From Darksidea phi (Eukaryota > Ascomycota > Dothideomycetes > Pleosporales > Lentitheciaceae), in assembly GCA_030770425.1 (NCBI GenBank), contig JASJFT010000153.1:1-64000 (forward strand): a DNA stretch of 64,000 bases, read 5' to 3'. Of this stretch, positions 6,063-41,682 are shown one piece after another. Below the pieces are notes generated by a model. It saw only the letters and a list, made by a program, of their open reading frames with translations, was not told where the DNA came from and searched no databases. Numbering within the stretch: position 1 is the stretch's first letter; each line of letters opens with the position of its first letter. The position numbers were made by a program, and so were the translations under genes.

Positions 6063-9000
6063 ATGGCGCGCTCACCATCGCGCTCGAGCGACGGCGCCGG
6101 CTCCGAGCACCACATCCGCGCCGAACCACGTCTGCTCAAAGCGATCGAAGAAGCAGAAGACGCAAAGGTCATCGCGATTATCGAGACCGCAAAGGCGAAG
6201 TCGCAACCCATCGAGCACCTCCTGCGCATCGGTATCGCACGCGCCGCCGAACGCGGAAACGTGTCCATCACCGAATATCTGCTGAAGGCGGGCGCGAAGT
6301 CGGATGGTGCCCCAGGAGGCCGAGTCTCGCCGTTGCTGAGAGCGATCGAGAAGAACCATGTGAGAATTGTGCAGTTGCTGCTCGAGTACGGCGGGAATGT
6401 GGACATTGCAGATAAGCAAGGGCGGACAGCGTTGATGACGGCCGCGTGGAAGAATCATTGGCATATATTGAATGAGCTGTTGCGGAAAGGTGCAGACGTG
6501 AATAGGAAGGATTGTAAGGGAAGGAATGTGCTGCATAACCTTGCTGCGGACAAACATTGTAATTGGGGGAGCTATGTGATTGACCTGCTGCTAAAAGAAG
6601 ACGTCGCGATTGATGGGCCGCAGGGGAAGGACAATACAGGGAGGAGTCCGCTGCATTGGGCGGCGTCAACGGGGAAAAAAGAGCTGTGTGAGATGTTACT
6701 GATAAGGCCGAGGCAGCCTAGAGCGAATATCAATGCCGTGGAAATGAAGGAGAAGACGCCGTTGCATCTGGCAGTTGCGCATGGAAGGGATGATATCGTC
6801 GAGTTGCTTATTCACTATGGCGCTAATGTGAAGGCCCGGAGTGATGGTGGATGGACGCCACTGCATAATGCCTGCCAGCATGGCAGTGTCAAGATTGTGA
6901 AAATGCTGCTAGCAGCAGGCGCCGATATAAACGCCCAAGTTTTGAACAGAAGTACACCGCTACACGAAGCCGCATTAGCGGGTCATCTCGAAATCGTGCA
7001 GTGTTTGCTCGAGCGAAAAGATTGCAAGCGTGCCCCAAGAGACAGCTTCGGAATCACGCCCTTTATTCGTGCCGCCCAGAAGAAGCATAAGGAAATCATT
7101 AATATACTTGCGCCGTTCAACCAGGTTGATATGCTGAGCGAGGACGCGCTGGGGGCATGCAACGGCTTCAACGCTACGATCGTTGACTTCGGAAACTTCC
7201 ACAATGAGAACAGAGTCACGAAGCGGACCATGTTCGAGATTCTGTACGGTCGAGACCCGCTGAATGCGCGGAAACCTGCCTTCAATATTCTCCCGAAGGA
7301 GGCCAAGGCTGTCAACTTCAGATGGGTACACCTTCCGGCCAATAACATGGCTTGGGTCGAAGCCCTTCTTACGAAAGCTTTCGTTGAGGAGGGCGCGTCC
7401 GACGTAGCTGGATTCATGGCTCTAGAGCGGTCCATCACTCATCAGCATCGCGGACAGCAGATACATTCACACTTTATGCGACCATTGTGTCAAAGTACAC
7501 CGCGAGCGCCCAAGCAACATGATGATTCGGACCTCTCAGATAGCGCAGAGCAGGGCCCACCGCAGATCGTTATCAGTCAAGGTACCGGTCTGGGTATTGA
7601 TACCACCTCTGGCGCACAAGAGCCATTGCCGTCTATACCGAAGACCCCTGTGCGGACTGGAACTATCAGTACAGATCAAACAGACTGGACAGTGGGCTCT
7701 GGCTCTGGTAAAGAGCCAAAGACACAGGGGAAGACCAAAGAGAAGCACAAGAAGACTGCGAAATGGGGAGGTGCGAGGCAAGCGGGTGGCAGGTCGGGTG
7801 GTACAGATACGCCGACAAGGCCTGCAGATCACCATACACGACGACATAACAGCACGCCAATAACGGGCAGTGGCCACCTTCGGTCGCCCGGGAGTCCGGG
7901 TAGGAAGGATCCGACGTCAGTAGCGAAGGGCAATATCTTCGCCTTCATGCCATACTTACACTTCGAGTCGCATCAGAGAAGACGGGAGATGCACGACGCC
8001 ATCGACCGGGTACAGAGAATGAAAGCGCGGGACAGGAGCGACGGTCGGTTAGTGAAGCCAACGCTGCAGAAAGCTCAAACATTTGACGAGATGCTGCTGA
8101 GGGCTCATTTGAACTCTTCGACCGTCTCGCTCCACGTGCGACGAACACTCGATCAGTTCTTCTACCACAACATCGACACGCAATCCCGCGACGAAGATCA
8201 GGTCGTGTATCGGTACCAGTGTCGGAGAGGGCCACCAGAGGAACTCGGTTTCGATCCGAAAATCTTCATGGTAGATCAATTGTGGATGTGGATTCTCGGT
8301 AAAGATCTGATCGTAACTGCTTTTCCGCAGCGTTGGCAACAGCCGAGAAATGATCCGCTGAACGTCTTAGACGGCATCATTGAGGACATAAATAGCAAAA
8401 CCCGCGACCCAGTGCGCTCCGTATACGATCTCGCTATGATCATCACGAGTCGCTGCTCCGGAGTATTCGATCGGCATAGGATGGGCGATGAAGACTACCA
8501 ATTCCTTGACATGTTCGAATCTAGCATCGGCGACGCCACAGAGATGGAAACCCAACTCTTCCAAGAATTCAACACAGCATCTGCTCAGGCGTCGGCCTGG
8601 CTCCAGCACCACCGTCGTCCAAACCGTTTCTCACGCCATCTTGAAGCCGAGGGAAGGCATATTGAGCACGAAAATAAACGGGGCATGCATTCGCACTCGC
8701 ATCGACATGCACTTGCTGATCCTCCTATCAACGAGAGTAGATTTCATGATGACGGAATGGGAATTGCGCATACACCACTTTTTGTCGATAAGTTACTTGA
8801 CATTGGCGCTGAAACTGACCTTCTAGCCGAGACCAAGGATATTAGGGATGAGCTTAATATGATTGCGAAGGTGCTTGAGGATCAACGGTCTGTGCTTCCG
8901 GATTTGGAAACGGGGATTATGGACATTTATAAGGAAGAGCACAAGAGTCAACAGGACCTGAAGAGGAGGTTTAAAGAGCAGATGAAGACGATTGATATTC

Positions 9001-9758
9001 ATTTGAAGGATTTGGATAGGATGGACAGACAAGCTGAACGGATCTACAAAAGTATAACCGACCTCTTAGACCTTAAACAGAAACACGCCAATGCCTTCGA
9101 AGCACGCTTTGCAAGAGACCAGGCTGCTGGAACAGCGCGGCAGTCGCAAACCATCATGGTCTTCACCATTGTCACCATCATCTTCCTCCCTCTTAGCTTC
9201 ATCGCGGCAATCTTTACCATCAACATCAAGGAATTCCCACACGAGCCCGGTAGCACCGAACCAAGCTTGCCCTTCAGCTTCGTCAGCAAGTTCATGTTCG
9301 GCATCGGCTTCGCCATTAGTATCCCCCTTATCGCCATCGCCGTATCCGTTGACGCGATCGGTGATTTCTTCCGCGAAGCCAAGCGCCGGTTCGCGGAGCG
9401 CGGGACACACTCTTCCCGGCAAAAGGCAGAAATCAGAGACGACAAGTTCGGTGTCAAGTACTCAGTCGACATGCATGCTTTGGAGCAAGCCCTCTCCGAG
9501 GGGAGAACCACGGCGCAGGGAAGGAGGAGTTGGGAGAGTTACCTAGGCGGTAGGCGTAGTTTGTCGCTCTTGCCTATATCTAGTAGAGGCACTGCGAGGT
9601 CGCCGGTCAAAAGAGATATTTTGGGAACGAATGGGGCTGCGAATGGGAGTGGTGGGGCGATGAGAAGAGGTAGCTCGGCGAGGAGACCCGGGCCACCTAT
9701 TGAGAGGATGAGTACTGGGTTTCGCATTCGTAGTGAGGATGTGGAAGCAGGGACTTAG
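6063..9758 (+). CDS. Ankyrin-repeat protein with C-terminal CorA-like membrane domain
   Basis: A single exon encoding 1231 residues from the first ATG. Residues of about 40-360 are a row of ankyrin repeats (typical 'GRTALMTAAWKNHWHILNELL' and 'GWTPLHNACQHGSVKIVKMLL' units). A low-complexity basic linker follows at about 470-620. Residues 700-1000 resemble the long alpha-helical cytosolic part of CorA-type divalent-cation channels, with a coiled region before the membrane. Two membrane helices end it: about 1030-1055 and 1078-1103. Canonical CorA proteins carry Gly-Met-Asn at the end of the first helix; here the corresponding sequence is 'IFTINIKEF', so the selectivity motif is missing. The C-terminal 120 residues are Arg/Ser/Gly-rich and likely disordered. 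This ankyrin-CorA fusion is common in filamentous ascomycetes; transport activity is unproven. Confidence 0.85.
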   Translation: MARSPSRSSDGAGSEHHIRAEPRLLKAIEEAEDAKVIAIIETAKAKSQPIEHLLRIGIARAAERGNVSITEYLLKAGAKSDGAPGGRVSPLLRAIEKNHVRIVQLLLEYGGNVDIADKQGRTALMTAAWKNHWHILNELLRKGADVNRKDCKGRNVLHNLAADKHCNWGSYVIDLLLKEDVAIDGPQGKDNTGRSPLHWAASTGKKELCEMLLIRPRQPRANINAVEMKEKTPLHLAVAHGRDDIVELLIHYGANVKARSDGGWTPLHNACQHGSVKIVKMLLAAGADINAQVLNRSTPLHEAALAGHLEIVQCLLERKDCKRAPRDSFGITPFIRAAQKKHKEIINILAPFNQVDMLSEDALGACNGFNATIVDFGNFHNENRVTKRTMFEILYGRDPLNARKPAFNILPKEAKAVNFRWVHLPANNMAWVEALLTKAFVEEGASDVAGFMALERSITHQHRGQQIHSHFMRPLCQSTPRAPKQHDDSDLSDSAEQGPPQIVISQGTGLGIDTTSGAQEPLPSIPKTPVRTGTISTDQTDWTVGSGSGKEPKTQGKTKEKHKKTAKWGGARQAGGRSGGTDTPTRPADHHTRRHNSTPITGSGHLRSPGSPGRKDPTSVAKGNIFAFMPYLHFESHQRRREMHDAIDRVQRMKARDRSDGRLVKPTLQKAQTFDEMLLRAHLNSSTVSLHVRRTLDQFFYHNIDTQSRDEDQVVYRYQCRRGPPEELGFDPKIFMVDQLWMWILGKDLIVTAFPQRWQQPRNDPLNVLDGIIEDINSKTRDPVRSVYDLAMIITSRCSGVFDRHRMGDEDYQFLDMFESSIGDATEMETQLFQEFNTASAQASAWLQHHRRPNRFSRHLEAEGRHIEHENKRGMHSHSHRHALADPPINESRFHDDGMGIAHTPLFVDKLLDIGAETDLLAETKDIRDELNMIAKVLEDQRSVLPDLETGIMDIYKEEHKSQQDLKRRFKEQMKTIDIHLKDLDRMDRQAERIYKSITDLLDLKQKHANAFEARFARDQAAGTARQSQTIMVFTIVTIIFLPLSFIAAIFTINIKEFPHEPGSTEPSLPFSFVSKFMFGIGFAISIPLIAIAVSVDAIGDFFREAKRRFAERGTHSSRQKAEIRDDKFGVKYSVDMHALEQALSEGRTTAQGRRSWESYLGGRRSLSLLPISSRGTARSPVKRDILGTNGAANGSGGAMRRGSSARRPGPPIERMSTGFRIRSEDVEAGT

Positions 9759-10339: not shown

Positions 10340-10415
<76 letters not shown>

Positions 10416-10607: not shown

Positions 10608-13600
10608 CTATTTCATACAAAGGTGAAGAATCGTAGTACGCCCTGAAGAATGCCCTAAGCAGACTACATTTTTATTGACTGCGATGCAAGTCGGTCGATA
10701 CTCAGAAGGAAGCCATAGCAACCGCTGCTGATCTGAAGAAATCCAATAGTATTGTACGAAGATACGAGACGGCTGCGCTGTTTGTGATAAGGGTAGTAAC
10801 GTAGTAGGAGAAGGCAAAGGAATGTCTCCCCAATCTGTTTGAAGATACTGGCCGTCCGGCGAGAAGGTGACGGCTCCAATCCACTCGCTATAGCCCTCGA
10901 GCACGCTGCGGCACAACCCCGTCGCCGCCTCCCACACCCGTACTGTCTTGTCGCCCGAGGCCGACGCGACCAGCTGGCCGTCTGACGAGAAGGCGACGGC
11001 GTTAACGCAGTTGGTATGGCCCTCGAGCACGCTACGGCACGACCCTGTCGCCGCCTCCCACACCCGCACTGTGTTGTCGCCCGAGGCCGATATGACCAGC
11101 TGGCCGTCTGGCGAGAAGGCGACGGCCGTGACGCGGCTGGTATGGCCCTCGAGCACGCCGCGGCACGACCCCGTCGCTGCCTCCCACACCCGCACTGTCT
11201 TGTCGTACGAGGCCGACGCGACCAGCTGGCCGTCTGGCGAGAAGGCGACGGCTCTGAGCCACATGGTATGGCCCTCGAGCACGCTGCGGCACGACCCCGT
11301 CGCCGCCTCCCACACCCGTACTGTCTTGTCGTACGAGGCCGACGCGACCAGCTGGCCGTCTGGCGAGAAGGCGACGGCCGTGACGCGGTCGGTATGGCCC
11401 TCGAGCACGCTGCGGTACGACCCTGTCGCTGCCTCCCACACCCACACCCGCACTGTCCTGTCGTACGAGGCCGACGCGACCAGCTGGCTATCTGGCGAGA
11501 AGGCGACGGCTCTGATCCACCTGGTATGGCCCTCGAGCACGCTGCGGCACGACCCTGTCGCCGCCTCCCACATCCGCACTGTCTTGTCGTCTGAGGCCGA
11601 CGCGACCAGCTGGCCGTCTGGCGAGAAGGCGACGGCCGTGACGCGGTCGGTATGGCCCTCGAGCACGCTNNNNNNNNNNNNNNNNNNNNNNNNNNNNNNN
11701 NNNNNNNNNNNNNNNNNNNNNNNNNNNNNNNNNNNNNNNNNNNNNNNNNNNNNNNNNNNNNNNNNNNNNNNNNNNNNNNNNNNNNNNNNNNNNNNNNNNN
11801 NNNNNNNNNNNNNNNNNNNNNNNNNNNNNNNNNNNNNNNNNNNNNNNNNNNNNNNNNNNNNNNNNNNNNNNNNNNNNNGCGACCAGCTGGCCGTCTGGCG
11901 AGAAGGCGACGGCCGTGACGCGGTCGGTATGGCCCTCGAGCACGCTGCGGCACGACCCCGTCGCCGCCTCCCACACCCGCACTGTCTTGTCGTACGAGGC
12001 CGACGCGACCAGCTGGCCGTCTGACGAGAAGGCGACGGCATCAACGCAGTTGGTATGGCCCTCGAGCACGCTACGGCACGACCCCGTCGCCGCCTCCCAT
12101 ACCCGTACTGTCTTGTCGACCGAGGCCGACATGACCAGCTGGCCGTCTGGCGAGAAGGCGACGGCCGTGACGCGGTCGGTATGGCCCTCGAGCACGCTGC
12201 GGCACGACCCCGTCGCCGCCTCCCATACCCGCACTGTGTTGTCGCCCGAGGCCGACGCGACCAACTGGCCGTCTGGCGAGAAGGCGACGGCGTCAACGCA
12301 GTTGGTATAGCCCTCGAGCACGCTGCGGCACGACCCCGTCGCCGCCTCCCACACCCGCACTATGTTGTCGCCCGAGGCCGACATGACCAGCTGGCCATCT
12401 GGCGAGAAGGCGACGGCCGTGACGCGGTCGGTATGGCCCTCGAGCACGCTGCGGCACGACCCCGTCGCCGCCTCCCATACCCGCACTGTGTTGTCGTCTG
12501 AGGCCGACGCGACCAGCTGGCCGTCTGACGAGAAGGCGACGGCGTTAACGTAGTTGGTATGGCCCTCGAGCACGCTGCGGCATGCATCCCAGTCGTCTTC
12601 CCTCTTCAACAGTGCCCTAATCCACCCCGGTATTTTGTTCATAAATGCTTTCCGTATTATACTCGCCTCAGGTGTAAAGATAAGAGCTGAGGAATATATC
12701 TGTAGAGGAGCATCTTCAAGTATATATCGGAATCGTAGTGTGAATCGTTGAGCATCTTGGACAAATGGGCGGAGAGTACTACTTGATGACTGTATTGCAT
12801 GTCAGTAATACCTTCTAGTAGAGTAACGAATATCCTACATCAATCAGCGCATAAAGCATTTCTAGTAACTGAGTACATTTGTTTGTCTCTCCGACTAGAC
12901 TCATCGCTTCAAGCCAATGAAGGAAGTGTTTCCGGAGGAATATATCTGTCAGGTCCCCGTCACTAACGTGGCCTTGGCTCTGCTCTAGATGATGCACCCA
13001 GTAACGGCAAGCATACTGCAACTCGGGCGACAGATAGCTCGTAATCCTTCCTTTATCGACCTCGCTTCTTAAAGTTCCAGGCTGTAAGTCGCACATGTTC
13101 TGTCGTAGGCCGCTCGGTCCGGACATGAGTTCAAGGCAATGAGACGCTAACTTCTCGTGTCTCGCTCTCTCATCCACCCAGAACGGGTTCTTCTCCTTCT
13201 TCGACGCATCGACGAGGAATTCCCGAAAGGACAGATGTAGGAGCCGCACAGGCATATCATCGCGGTCTGGTATGCTTAGAACGGAGTGTAGGGAATCCAG
13301 TCGGCAACTGATGTCATCCTTGGATATATGAAGAAGGCGAGCAAGCGATACCGTGGACAGTGGAGTCTCCAGAACCACTATACTCCCTACAATTTTCTGA
13401 AACTGGCATGCCCATCTCTCTCTGTCTTCCTTATCCTCTTCGTCAAATAGCTGATTGAGGATAGGGAGATACGTCGCATCGAGTTTCGAGACTTTCGCCT
13501 TCCCATACTCCAAAATGATCTCTAGGCGCTTTTTAGGATTATCCCGTCGATCGCCGATATATCGGCACGCTGTAGCAGCGAAGATGAACAGTGGGACTGC

Positions 13601-14926
13601 TTGTGCGACTAGCGCCTCGACTTGATCCCGTCTCGGCCAGCCTGCGGACAACGATCGTTCTTCCCGTACTCGTCTCAGTTCATGCTCGAAATAGACGCGT
13701 ATGTCGTGCTGAATCGTTTGTTTTGCGACTTCGTGCAGGATTAGGTCTTCGAATGTGCCGTCGGGCAATTGTTTGAATCCCAAGCGGATTTGCAGTTCCG
13801 GTCGGCTTGTTACGAAAACTCGTAATGATACCGACTTAAGATGCCTCGTTCGCGAAAGGAGCTGGAGGATTACCCGTATGTCCTTATCTTGCTCGCATTC
13901 ATCCAACGCATCTATTACGATGAGTAGTACCAAGGCTGATGGATGTGCCACGTCTAAGAGCGGCTGAAGGATCAACTTCTCGAATTGATCCTTCAGAGCC
14001 TTCTCAGATATGGCTGGATCAGCTTCAATCGCCTTCTTCACTCCAGATCCTAACTCCGGTAGACGTCGAGCCAGCTGTGTAGCGATTGTGGCAAAGAATC
14101 GCGTGGCGTTGCCGCGCCCCCCCTCGCCTCTTTTGAAGAAGAAGCTGGCTCCTAGTTCTCGTTGGTCGTGGAAGGTCCGGGCAACCGTACGCGCAATCGT
14201 AGACTTTCCCGTGCCTGCCGCCCCATTCAGCCAGAATATAGGTTTGCTATCCTTGTCCTTTGCCCATCCTTGTATGTGACGCAACAACTCGATGCGGGTG
14301 TTTGGGAGGCATGTCGAGTTATGTTCTTCCATGTGAGAGTCGAAGGAAGCGCCTTTAGCGGTAGGCAGCCTGGCCAAATCAACCTTCGATAGGAGTGTGT
14401 CGGTTTTCGTGTTAACGAGGTCCAACTTGTGATCAACGCTAAGGATAAGCTCTCTATACAGATCAATTGTTAGAGTTTGCTTGCGCTGTTGAACGCCTAT
14501 AACTTACGTTTGGTCGACCTGAAGCGCCAGGCTGAAAGTGTGCTCGTACTGCTCAAGGCTAACAACCATCCTTTCCACTTGCGTGCTCGTGAAAGGCCAT
14601 TTCAGGGCCCGGAAACCAACTCGCTGCATTGTTTTACGGCCTCGGCCGGGTTCGAGCTGCGCCTTGAGCCCTTGCAACTGCTGATAGCATTCTTTTAACG
14701 AGTCTGCCATCTTGCGTGTGGTAGAGAGCTGCGACTCGTCCTGCCTATCTAAAAGCTGTTGAAGCTTCTCAAGAACATTCTTGATATCCGTCACCTTTTG
14801 TTGGAGGCGTCCAATGACCCTCTTTGCGTCCTTGACGGCGACTGAATACTGGAAGCAGAGCAACGCGACCTTGGCGGATATGTTGACGACGGTTATCACG
14901 CTTGCCGCCCCGGAAAGGCCGTCCAT
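10608..14926 (-). CDS. NLR-type STAND receptor: HeLo-like N-terminus, NACHT, WD40 repeats
   Basis: Three exons by my reading: 14926-14508, 14453-12839 and 12789-10608, with introns of 54 and 49 bases (GTAAGT...CTAAC...TAG and GTAGGA...CTGAC...CAG). The joins restore '[15 protein letters not shown]' and '[15 protein letters not shown]', both expected for the family. Residues 1-140 are the helical N-terminal domain of fungal STAND proteins (HeLo-like type). The NACHT follows, with P-loop GAAGTGKST (Lys about 223) and Walker B '[11 protein letters not shown]' (about 318-326). The linker '[15 protein letters not shown]' leads into the WD40 array, and the protein ends with the usual '[10 protein letters not shown]' blade. 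Proteins of this build act in vegetative incompatibility and, by inference, innate immunity-like recognition in the cytosol. An N gap interrupts the array, and the frame is off by one base across it; with a corrected gap length the gene is intact. Confidence 0.9.
10908..12576 (-). repeat. Array of near-identical 126-base WD40 units
   Basis: Each unit encodes 42 residues running from SVLEGHT to EAATGSCR. I count five full units plus 68 bases before the gap (698 bases exactly) and six full units after it (762 bases, of which 6 are an insertion), followed by a degenerate last unit. Variation between units is concentrated at unit positions 8, 9, 11, 23, 27 and 29; the rest is almost constant even at DNA level. 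This pattern indicates homogenisation of the array with diversifying change at the exposed propeller positions. Confidence 0.9.
11670..11878. other. Assembly gap of 209 N
   Basis: All bases are N. The gap starts 68 bases into one WD40 unit and ends exactly at the start of another, so the true missing length should be 58 plus a multiple of 126. The nearest value to 209 is 184 (one whole missing unit), which also repairs the reading frame. Confidence 0.95.
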
Positions 14927-15480
14927 GATGCGGGGCGCGGTCAGGACCGCAGCGGACGTTGTGGTTATGTAGAAGCTCCTGCGTATGTTCGCAAGGCGGC
15001 GAGGCCGTGCCTTGGGTGTCAGAGATGTTGCCGTTCATCTTGAGTGCGGCGGTGCTGAGAAGGCTACTGCGGCTAAGCGCTGTTCCACATGGTAACGTGT
15101 TCCACCACTCAGTGGGACACTACGGCGGAGTCGGTGGGACGCCCCACCAAAACCAATGCGCGTTTTTGACTGATTGCGCGATAACGCCAGAATATTTTGT
15201 GTTGCAATTCTATAGACAGGCTTCCTAGATAGCTCTAGTAGAAATACCGCTAGTATGGCTACTAACCAAATTCTCGAAGTATTTAATAGAGCGTACGGCG
15301 AGGATAAGAGATTACGAACAAGCGAAAAGCGACGAGTAAGCCTAAAAATATACAAAACAATAGGTAGACGATGGTCTATTTTGGCTACGTATTTTGGGCT
15401 CGGCATCTTCTTGACTTGTAGCCCCCGCTTAGAGGCTCAAATGTAAGATCCCCGTAAGTTCCGGTTTCCTATGACTAACT
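14927..15480. other. NLR upstream region
   Basis: The 5' side of the NLR gene. No gene is supported here. It presumably contains the NLR promoter. Confidence 0.4.
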
Positions 15481-39576: not shown

Positions 39577-40857
39577 GTTTAATGCTGAAAAGGGAAAGAA
39601 CTATTGTTCGAATTGGGACTGAAGAATTAGGGTTTTCGGCGCAATGTTCTGCGGGGCGGGATCTCGACTCAACCGAGCTTAGTAATGGGCTCAGACTAGA
39701 CCAGATGGCGACTAGTGAAGTGGGGCTTGACAAGGGGTTGCAAGAGTGGTAGAGGATATTAGCTAATAAGGTCTTCTATTCGAAAGGCGTCTTCTGATTT
39801 CTGTATAGCTATTTGACATTGACTTGAAATGATCTTGCCAGCACATTTCTTAGTCTGTGAACAAAACTTACCCTACGTATTTGGAGCTTTGGGGGAGCTT
39901 CAGTGTTGTTATGCGGCTTGGTCGATGTTTCGGGACTTGGAACTCGGGAGTATATAGGACTTATACTTTAATAGTTAAGAAAAAGTTATTATTAAGCTTG
40001 GTAATAAGCTAAAGTTATCTGTAGATTATAAGTAGGCTCTTGAGCCGTATACGCGTATACACATACACACACACATATAAATAAAAACTCTTACTATAGA
40101 AGCAGTTGACGTGATCGCCGTATGCCAGCGGATCGGATAGCTGTCTTTGAAACGCGCGTTAAGAGTAATTTGCGATTATTGTGGCTTGTATCCATTCGAA
40201 TATTCTACTCAGCAATTGAGTTTGAAGTTTAGCAGTCGAATTCGAACGAGCCCATCCCCCCAGGATGACTACTGGGTGTTTGGATATTGAAATGCTGCAT
40301 AAAGGTAAGGTTTGAATTATAGTGATCAGCCACATAACCGTGATCGATTATACGTGCCTTAATTTCTTCTTTGCTTCACTTGACCTATTATTTTCTGTAG
40401 TCTTGTATGGCATCGTGTACTCGCGGTTGTTCTTTTGTTCTAGCTTCAAACTAGGACTAATAGATGGCCATATATCAAATTTTCAGCTCGCTTTGCCATT
40501 GCACATTCATATACAGCCACTCTCATGAATTTCTCGGCTCGAGTTTCCTTCGATCCAACAATCACAAAATCGCATACAGCTTTGGGAGAGAGTAAAGTAC
40601 GCGCAAGGAGCCCCTCATTCAGCCATTGATCCTGGAAGGATGAACGAGTGAATAAGAAGACTAATTGTTAATCGATATAAAGCAAGTAACTTTTGAAAGC
40701 AGTTGCCAGACACAACGCTAGGTCACCCTAGCTGTCTGAGCCGTGATCAGTAAAACCAAATACATGTAGCATGCCAAATCCGGGTGTCTAGGCTCCTTTA
40801 GTTGCCTCTTGCTTGACCAACTTCTCCTCCATGGCCTGAGGTATCTCCTCCATGACC
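39577..40857. other. Intergenic, AT-rich centre
   Basis: No gene. AT-rich from about 39940 to 40090, with a TA/CA dinucleotide patch (GTATACGCGTATACACATACACAC near 40045-40070). Confidence 0.45.
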
Positions 40858-41682
40858 TTAAGAGGTATTTCCTCCACGGCCCCGAGTATTTCCTCCACGG
40901 CCTCGAGTATTTCCTCCACGGCCTCGAGTGTCTCCCCCACGGCCGCCGGTATGTCCTCCACGGCCTTGAGTATTTCCTCCACGGCCTTGAGGATATCCTC
41001 CTTGGCCTTGACCTTGAGGATATCCTCCCTGGCCTTGAGGATACCCTCCCTGGCCTTGAGGATATCCTCCCTGAGCTTGAGGATACCCTCCCTGGCCTTG
41101 AGGATACCCTCCCTGACCTTGAGGATATCCTCCCTGACCTTGAGGATATCCTCCCTGACCTTGAGGATATCCTCCCTGAGCTTGAGGATATCCTCCCTGA
41201 CCTTGAGGATACCCTCCCTGACCTTGAGGATACCCTCCTTGACCTTGAGTGGAAGCCATTGGGTTTGACACTGGTGCCTGAGGCGACTGAAGTTGATCAA
41301 TCCTACTACGTGCAGCATCGGCTTTCTCTTGGAACGCCGTGCGCTTGGGCTCCTCACTCTCCTTTGCAATCCTCTTGTAGATTGGCTCCAGTGCCTCCAG
41401 GACATACAATTCCCTCGTTGCCTCCCCCAGACCAGTTGCTTCCAGGTTAGCGTCAAATGCAGCAATATTCATTTGCCGCTGCTCTTCTTTCGTGGGCTTC
41501 TTCTCCCGTGCTTCCATGCAGCTATCGCATGCGTCCACGTAATGGCTATCGTGGTATGCTAGAGCCGCGTCGGTCCCGCAGAGTGCGGTGCGCTGCTCCG
41601 AGTTTTGCAGCCCGCATGGTTGGAAGATGCGAGAACAGATGAGACGGCAGATATTGCACTTTGGGCCTCTATAGCTGCACAT
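40858..41682 (-). CDS. Cys-rich protein with GGYPQGQ repeat tail
   Basis: An ATG-started 274-residue protein with an even amino-acid pattern through the whole frame. Residues 1-55 are Cys-rich (CxxC and CxxxC pairs in '[16 protein letters not shown]' and '[10 protein letters not shown]'), possibly metal-binding or disulfide-forming. Residues 56-140 are helical and charged. From about 145 there are 14 copies of GGYPQ[GA]Q, then five or six GGxTRGR units, to the stop. The tail resembles low-complexity prion-like/RGG sequences that drive phase separation or RNA binding, but this is inference. A small Cys-rich gene of similar N-terminal style (42443-42625) lies upstream on the same strand. The function is unknown. 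Confidence 0.65.
40862..41250 (-). repeat. 21-base coding minisatellite (GGYPQGQ units)
   Basis: About 14 units of 21 bases encoding GGYPQGQ or GGYPQAQ, grading into five or six GGxTRGR-type units. Because the units are stop-free in several frames, long spurious frames occur on both strands here. Confidence 0.9.

What the first reader, a model, noticed from the sequence alone, without database searches (positions are those of the whole stretch)
10608..14926. NLR receptor with homogenised but surface-variable WD40 units
The 42-residue WD units are almost identical in DNA, yet the differences cluster at unit positions 8, 9, 11, 23, 27 and 29. In HET-E/HET-D/HET-R-type proteins the equivalent positions are exposed on the propeller face and evolve under positive selection while the array is shuffled by concerted evolution. 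That makes this gene a strong candidate for a non-self recognition (incompatibility or immunity-like) receptor with strain-specific alleles.
Basis: partly seen in the sequence, partly recalled or inferred. Interest (0 to 1): 0.75.

Follow-up and report, generated by a model that had tools for sequence, protein, structure and literature searches.

The report
Fungal immune-type receptor with repeat propeller
A mould gene for a probable cell-death receptor whose near-identical sensor repeats differ mostly at the few spots thought to touch its target; it fits a known class of fungal self/non-self receptors, and this copy is interrupted by an assembly gap.

Summary
A predicted three-exon minus-strand gene (14926-10608) encodes a HeLo-like (PF17111), NACHT/NPHP3_N, WD40 protein with 42-residue units, on average 90.6% alike in DNA. 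Five of them (8, 9, 11, 27, 29) are among the seven positions published for Podospora HNWD genes. They are also the five most variable over 52 arrays from this genome and from homologues. The sixth (23) lies inside a predicted beta-strand and is not a general hypervariable site.

Three corrections. The array is broken by 209 N (11670-11878), whose flanks share an exact 68-base overlap, so unit number and order are unknown. I had no strain data for this gene. The N-terminus is HeLo-like, not HET, so it is not an HNWD gene in the strict sense. In a relative (Bipolaris maydis), two deposited versions with identical 736-residue N-terminal parts differ only in the array.

Best reading: an ordinary high-internal-conservation NLR of a probable pleosporalean fungus whose genome gives 84 NACHT matches. 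It would sense a ligand with a WD40 propeller and trigger cell death; incompatibility or defence is open. New member of a known kind.

The parts
10608..14926 (-). whole NLR gene, three predicted exons: 14926-14508, 14453-12839, 12789-10608
   Evidence: GT..AG introns restore one frame up to the N gap; homologues cover residues 1-760 at up to 84% identity
14508..14926 (-). HeLo-like N-terminal effector domain (PF17111, listed as PigL_N)
   Evidence: 40.1 bits, cut-off 27.2; SesA 23.1 bits, below its cut-off (the query ran one base into intron 1); helices only in the AlphaFold2 model, pLDDT 72, no significant PDB match
12839..14452 (-). NACHT / NPHP3_N nucleotide-binding module and linker (exon 2)
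   Evidence: NPHP3_N 113.8 bits, NACHT 37.0 bits, both over cut-off
12790..12838 (-). intron 2 (49 bp, GTAGGA...ACTGAC...ACAG), predicted
   Evidence: skips an in-frame stop and restores the conserved linker seen in the homologues' consensus
14454..14507 (-). intron 1 (54 bp, GTAAGT...TATAG), predicted
11879..12582 (-). WD40 units 1-5 and the first part of unit 6, high internal conservation
   Evidence: PF00400 245 bits
11670..11878 (.). assembly gap, 209 N; true length 58+126k, or an unmerged overlap
   Evidence: exact 68-base suffix/prefix overlap of the two flanks
10914..11669 (-). WD40 units 7-12; unit 8 (11549-11418) carries a 6-bp in-frame duplication
   Evidence: propeller model pLDDT 91.9
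10608..10913 (-). divergent thirteenth unit and C-terminal tail predicted to fold as further, cryptic blades
   Evidence: strands predicted to residue 349 of 353; tail residues recur in the homologues' consensus

Best explanation
The gene encodes a fungal NLR of the high-internal-conservation class. The WD40 array folds into propellers, probably seven-bladed. Residues in the d-a loop and at the start of strand a (10, 11, 13) and in the b-c loop (29, 31) of each blade form the ligand-contact face. Unequal exchange and short conversion inside the locus keep the framework alike and reshuffle these residues. When the face meets its ligand, the NACHT module oligomerises and clusters the N-terminal HeLo-like bundles, which act on membranes and kill the cell. 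Shown: domain order, repeat homogeneity, place of variability, a confident propeller model for the part after the gap, absence of recent unit exchange with six other loci. Inferred: ligand binding, oligomerisation, cell death, and whether the trigger is a conspecific or a foreign molecule.
For: Pfam architecture. Positions of variability match Podospora. Over 52 arrays the top five within-array variable positions are 29, 13, 11, 10, 31. In the six paralogous arrays of this genome the top seven (11, 29, 10, 31, 13, 9, 38) are exactly the seven published positions 10, 11, 12, 14, 30, 32, 39 shifted by one. DSSP of the model puts 10-11 and 29-31 in the d-a and b-c loops and 13 at the start of strand a; WD40 propellers, among them structures named seven-bladed (7big, 7bie), are its best PDB matches. 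Related NODs carry HET (P0073, P0100, P0119, P0120) or PNP_UDP (P0028, P0113) instead of HeLo-like, so the N-terminus behaves as an exchangeable effector. Pore formation by HeLo-related domains: PMC9815663, passages.
Against: No expression, ligand or phenotype data. The N-terminal model had no significant PDB match. pN/pS within the five codons is below 1 in L042, L043 and L038 and only 1.04 in L047. Over all 52 arrays positions 9 and 38, two of the published seven, are less prominent (38 sixth, 9 twelfth). The array is not fully assembled.
Confidence: 0.8

Rival explanations
1. The gene is a vegetative-incompatibility (het) locus: its alleles recognise variants of a host protein of the same species, as HET-D and HET-E recognise HET-C.
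For: Same sensor class and mostly the same hypervariable positions as HET-D/E/R. In Bipolaris maydis two deposited versions of a related gene are identical over the 736 residues before the array, and all 23 substitutions lie in the array.
Against: The domain is HeLo-like, not HET. Even in Podospora not all HNWD genes are known het genes; hnwd1 and hnwd3 are of unknown function (PMC12222747, section read). No partner or cross data.
Confidence: 0.3
2. The five positions are simply loop residues without constraint, so they drift while the framework is held; no diversifying selection is needed.
For: In six paralogous loci the synonymous level at the same codons is also raised (pooled pS 0.448, pN 0.475).
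Against: In the window pN 0.430 against pS 0.214 at these codons, and 15 non-synonymous to 1 synonymous distinct codon changes against 11 to 9 elsewhere (one-sided Fisher p 0.011). pN at the five sites over array-wide pS is 2.05 over seven loci (bootstrap 1.75-2.50). The same sites lead in the average of 44 external arrays. None of these counts allows for recombination.
Confidence: 0.2
3. Part of the unit diversity and order is an assembly artefact: short reads collapsed and chimerised the units around the gap.
For: 209 N in the array and a 68-base exact overlap of its flanks; the arrays on contigs C99 and C447 run to the contig ends. Published: short-read assemblies of such genes lose, gain or chimerise units (PMC12222747, section read). 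The sequencing method of this genome is unknown to me.
Against: The same variable positions lead in six other loci of the genome and in 44 external arrays, so the positional pattern is real even if the order is not.
Confidence: 0.15

Closest known systems
Podospora anserina HNWD genes het-d, het-e, het-r (PMC1805685, PMC2873952, PMC12222747)
   Same: NACHT and WD40 high-internal-conservation array of 42-residue units; five of the seven published variable positions; homogenised units; divergent C-terminal blades
   Different: HeLo-like instead of HET effector; positions 9 and 38 fixed and 25 variable here; no sign of unit exchange with the six other loci compared; unit number unknown
HeLo-like/NACHT/WD40 NLRs catalogued in fungi (Dyrka et al. 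2014, PMC4986451; PMC9815663)
   Same: same domain order; 21.6% of WD-type NLR repeats there show high internal conservation (passages)
Bimuria novae-zelandiae NLRs P0001 and P0002 (Pleosporales)
   Same: 84% identity over residues 1-760, same unit framework [32 protein letters not shown]
   Different: only two and three full units in the deposited models, other residues at the variable positions

Membership tests
Fungal NLR with high internal conservation (HIC) WD40 repeats | NACHT-type nucleotide-binding domain | tested here: met
   NACHT 37.0 bits, cut-off 26.7; NPHP3_N 113.8 bits, cut-off 24.8
Fungal NLR with high internal conservation (HIC) WD40 repeats | repeats over 85% identical over at least 100 residues (Dyrka et al. 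2014, passage) | tested here: met
   mean protein identity of units 0.86 in the first half (five full units, about 205 residues); 0.84, just below, in the second half, hypervariable sites included; DNA 0.849-1.0. My measure is a simple pairwise mean, not the paper's method
Fungal NLR with high internal conservation (HIC) WD40 repeats | variation concentrated at the published loop positions | tested here: met
   five of the seven published positions are, with 25, the most variable; 9 and 38 invariant
Podospora HNWD gene family | N-terminal HET domain | tested here: not met
   PF17111 instead; no HET match at E 0.01 in exons 1 and 2
Podospora HNWD gene family | unit exchange between paralogous loci | tested here: not met
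   best unit of six other loci is 80.5% identical to a window unit; other loci of the genome were not compared unit by unit
Podospora HNWD gene family | 10-12 HIC units in reactive alleles plus three cryptic C-terminal blades | tested here: inconclusive
   11 units if the gap is an overlap, 12 with a 58-base gap, 13 with 184 (inference); fragment model shows about two divergent blades and one further strand
het (incompatibility) gene | allele-dependent cell death on fusion | not testable with these tools
   no strains, no phenotype
HeLo-like effector | PF17111 match | tested here: met
   40.1 bits, cut-off 27.2
HeLo-like effector | four-helix bundle fold like MLKL/HET-S | tested here: inconclusive
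   helical model, pLDDT 72, pTM 0.45; 0 of 195 PDB matches at E 0.001 or better

The most novel reading that the evidence does not exclude
The receptor is built from two-unit super-repeats. Every second blade keeps a fixed d-a loop (xRVT) while the blades between carry changing ones, and the b-c loops vary independently, so the ligand would be read by alternate blades. In the window no two neighbouring units within either block share a residue at positions 10, 11 or 13, whereas units two apart are on average 63% identical there (null 24%, p 0.0022). Against it: the test was chosen after looking, unit 12 and the divergent unit 13 break the alternation, the gap hides the middle, and only 2 of 32 other arrays show a lag-2 signal at these positions. 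A plain two-unit duplication explains it.
Probability: 0.06. Interest if true: 0.4.

Novelty: new member of a known kind. Interest (0 to 1): 0.22.

Why it matters
It shows that the signature defined in Podospora recurs at the same residues in NLR arrays of other ascomycetes (mostly Dothideomycetes by name, recalled except for the two species looked up) and within one genome, with exchangeable effector domains on related NODs. That supports a general fungal scheme of rapidly changing propeller receptors. The gene itself is one ordinary example, and its broken assembly echoes the published warning about short-read arrays.

Tried and rejected
Two-unit alternation as a family rule: rejected; it is local to this array. 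In the lag test over 45 arrays (43 others and the two window halves; all columns, uncorrected p below 0.05, about 2 expected by chance) lag 1 is raised in 14, lag 2 in 6 (one of them the second window half; the first half has p 0.117) and lag 3 in 4. I read this as duplications of single units and of blocks. My first exact test (p 0.0029) asked for strict alternation including unit 13, which the data do not show; I do not use it.

Exchange of units with other loci of the genome: no unit above 80.5% identity in six loci. RIP as source of the variants: indices of the array (TpA/ApT 1.14 and 1.33; second index 0.80 and 0.82) are hard to interpret in a repeated coding motif, so I draw nothing from them.

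Fold of the N-terminus: no significant match. Solved relatives of exon 2 by sequence: none at E 1. Higher-order repeats in fungal WD40 NLRs in print: the search found 25 papers with four of five terms and listed 8, none of the 8 holding the term 'higher-order repeat'; papers not in that library were not searched.

Rows dropped: 26 unit matches of L loci were left out for indels or ends, and further clean ones in frames with fewer than four; L039, L040, L041 and L044 dropped out entirely, leaving six paralogous loci and the window. In one search, 58 arrays had five or more units and 52 passed the internal-identity limit of 0.70; the lag test needed six or more units (45). One search was a first version that kept only three loci, window included; one search supersedes it. 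The homologue search listed the best 120 of 4382 proteins, and only 7989 candidates had been scored; alignments A1 and A2 used 49 and 39 of the 120.

Full report
Gene and gap. The window lies on contig 61 of an unnamed 51.35-Mb, 477-contig genome with 84 NACHT matches at E 0.001 or better, a lower bound. The best homologues of residues 1-760 are from Bimuria novae-zelandiae (84%), Lindgomyces, Pyrenochaeta, Lentithecium and others (best 120 of 4382 listed). Bimuria and Lindgomyces are Pleosporales, Dothideomycetes, so a pleosporalean host is likely. The gene has three predicted exons. Pfam gives PF17111 (PigL_N here, Helo_like_N in PMC9815663, passages), NPHP3_N and NACHT, and WD40. The array is interrupted by 209 N. 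If no base is otherwise wrong, the true gap must be 58+126k bases, and 209 fits no k. The flanks overlap exactly by 68 bases, but the same 68 bases also occur in unit 9. Eleven, twelve, thirteen or more units are therefore all possible.

Variable positions. Paoletti et al. 2007 (PMC1805685, passages) report four codons (7, 9, 25, 27) under strong positive selection; these equal positions 11, 13, 29 and 31 here. The register is my own reading of that paper's statement that the selected pairs flank conserved sites 8 and 26. It agrees with the repeat printed in PMC12222747 and its seven positions 10, 11, 12, 14, 30, 32, 39, which become 9, 10, 11, 13, 29, 31, 38. In the window 9 and 38 do not vary, and 25 varies in addition.

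Generality. I extracted WD units from the 120 listed homologues and from ten stretches of the same genome. 58 arrays had at least five units, and 52 of these entered the entropy table: 44 external, six paralogous, and the two halves of the window array. The top five positions are 29, 13, 11, 10 and 31, also with the external arrays alone. In the six paralogous arrays alone the top seven are exactly the seven published positions; over all 52, position 38 is sixth and position 9 only twelfth.

Selection. Per-codon counts for the window: pN 0.430 and pS 0.214 at the five sites, pN 0.034 and pS 0.109 elsewhere. Over seven loci pN at the five sites is 2.05 times the array-wide pS (bootstrap over loci 1.75-2.50). 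Told against: within the five codons pN/pS is 0.94 (L042), 0.79 (L043), 0.92 (L038), 1.04 (L047), 1.56 (L045) and 2.2 (L046), ratios worked out, so relaxed constraint is not excluded by this measure. The counting method ignores recombination.

Concerted evolution. Units are 0.905 identical within the locus and 0.592-0.745 to six other loci. No recent exchange between these loci is seen. The alternation of the d-a loop is not followed by the b-c half (lag-2 p 0.12), which points to exchange tracts shorter than a unit, as described for Podospora mutants (PMC2873952, passages).

Structure. The post-gap part folds with pLDDT 91.9 into blades of four strands. In a unit, strands cover about positions 1-6, 12-17, 23-28 and 32-37, so 10-11 and 29-31 are in loops, 13 is at the start of strand a, and 25 is inside strand b. 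The best PDB matches are WD40 propellers: 5yzv, and 7big and 7bie, which the listing names seven-bladed. That both loop types lie on the same, top face is taken from Paoletti et al., not measured here. The N-terminal model is helical but of modest confidence and has no significant match.

Alleles in a relative. Among the 120 homologues, P0085 (Bipolaris maydis C5) and P0087 (B. maydis) are 100% identical over the 736 residues before the array. All 23 substituted columns fall in units 1-4; the 7 gap columns also lie there by my reading of the two sequences. The substitutions are not confined to the five sites, and one stretch at the end of unit 1 looks like a shifted frame or gene-model difference. 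P0086 (ATCC 48331) has the same 736 residues and an array cut down to parts of two units, which may be real or an assembly or gene-model effect. In Pyrenophora tritici-repentis, P0094 and P0098 share 99.9% of the 736 residues with seven and three unit matches, P0098 being on a short contig. P0055 and P0063 (Exserohilum turcica and B. maydis) share 98% of the NOD part and have seven and three unit matches with different residues. This supports fast array change in the family, not in the window gene itself.

Effector exchange. Homologues 66-85% identical over 68-82% of residues 1-760 carry HET (four) or PNP_UDP (two) domains, confirmed by scan. The list is a lower bound because the precomputed domain columns were cut. 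Dyrka et al. 2014 already describe such swaps (PMC4986451, passages).

Verdict. The finding is accurate in its observation and sound in its analogy, but over-reaches on strain-specific alleles and does not mention the gap. It is a new member of a known kind. Papers: PMC12222747 abstract and sections 14, 15, 17 and 18 read, plus passages; PMC1805685, PMC2873952, PMC4986451, PMC9815663 and PMC12258605 passages only; others search listing only.

Noticed in passing
window 15092-15237: Short dispersed repeat about 170-310 bp upstream of the start codon; 20 further matches in the genome at 75-94% identity, about half of them covering some 92-97 bp, like a small DNA-transposon remnant.
   Followed up: partly
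window 10343-10413: Perfect (TC)n run of 71 bases about 200 bp downstream of the stop codon.
   Followed up: no
window 6063-9758 (+): Neighbouring open frame of 1231 residues with ankyrin repeats and a CorA-like domain.
   Followed up: no
L038 (C99) and L039 (C447): Two WD40 arrays of similar framework each run into a contig end, one lacking its 3' part and one its 5' part; they may be halves of one gene split by the assembly.
   Followed up: no
L042 (C49:100500-109500): A 13-unit array with a three-unit period (lag-3 p 0.001): units 3, 6, 9 and 12 carry a PV motif (APV or TPV) in the d-a loop.
   Followed up: partly
L044 (C427, about 79774-79886): Short stretch 82% identical to the window units over 113 bases, sharing the [15 protein letters not shown] framework: perhaps remains of a sister gene.
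   Followed up: no
window 40823-41249: 21-bp tandem repeats inside an open frame (40858-41682, minus), no Pfam match at E 0.001.
   Followed up: no
window 11418-11549: Unit 8 carries a 6-bp in-frame duplication (VWVW); model confidence dips there to about 80.
   Followed up: partly
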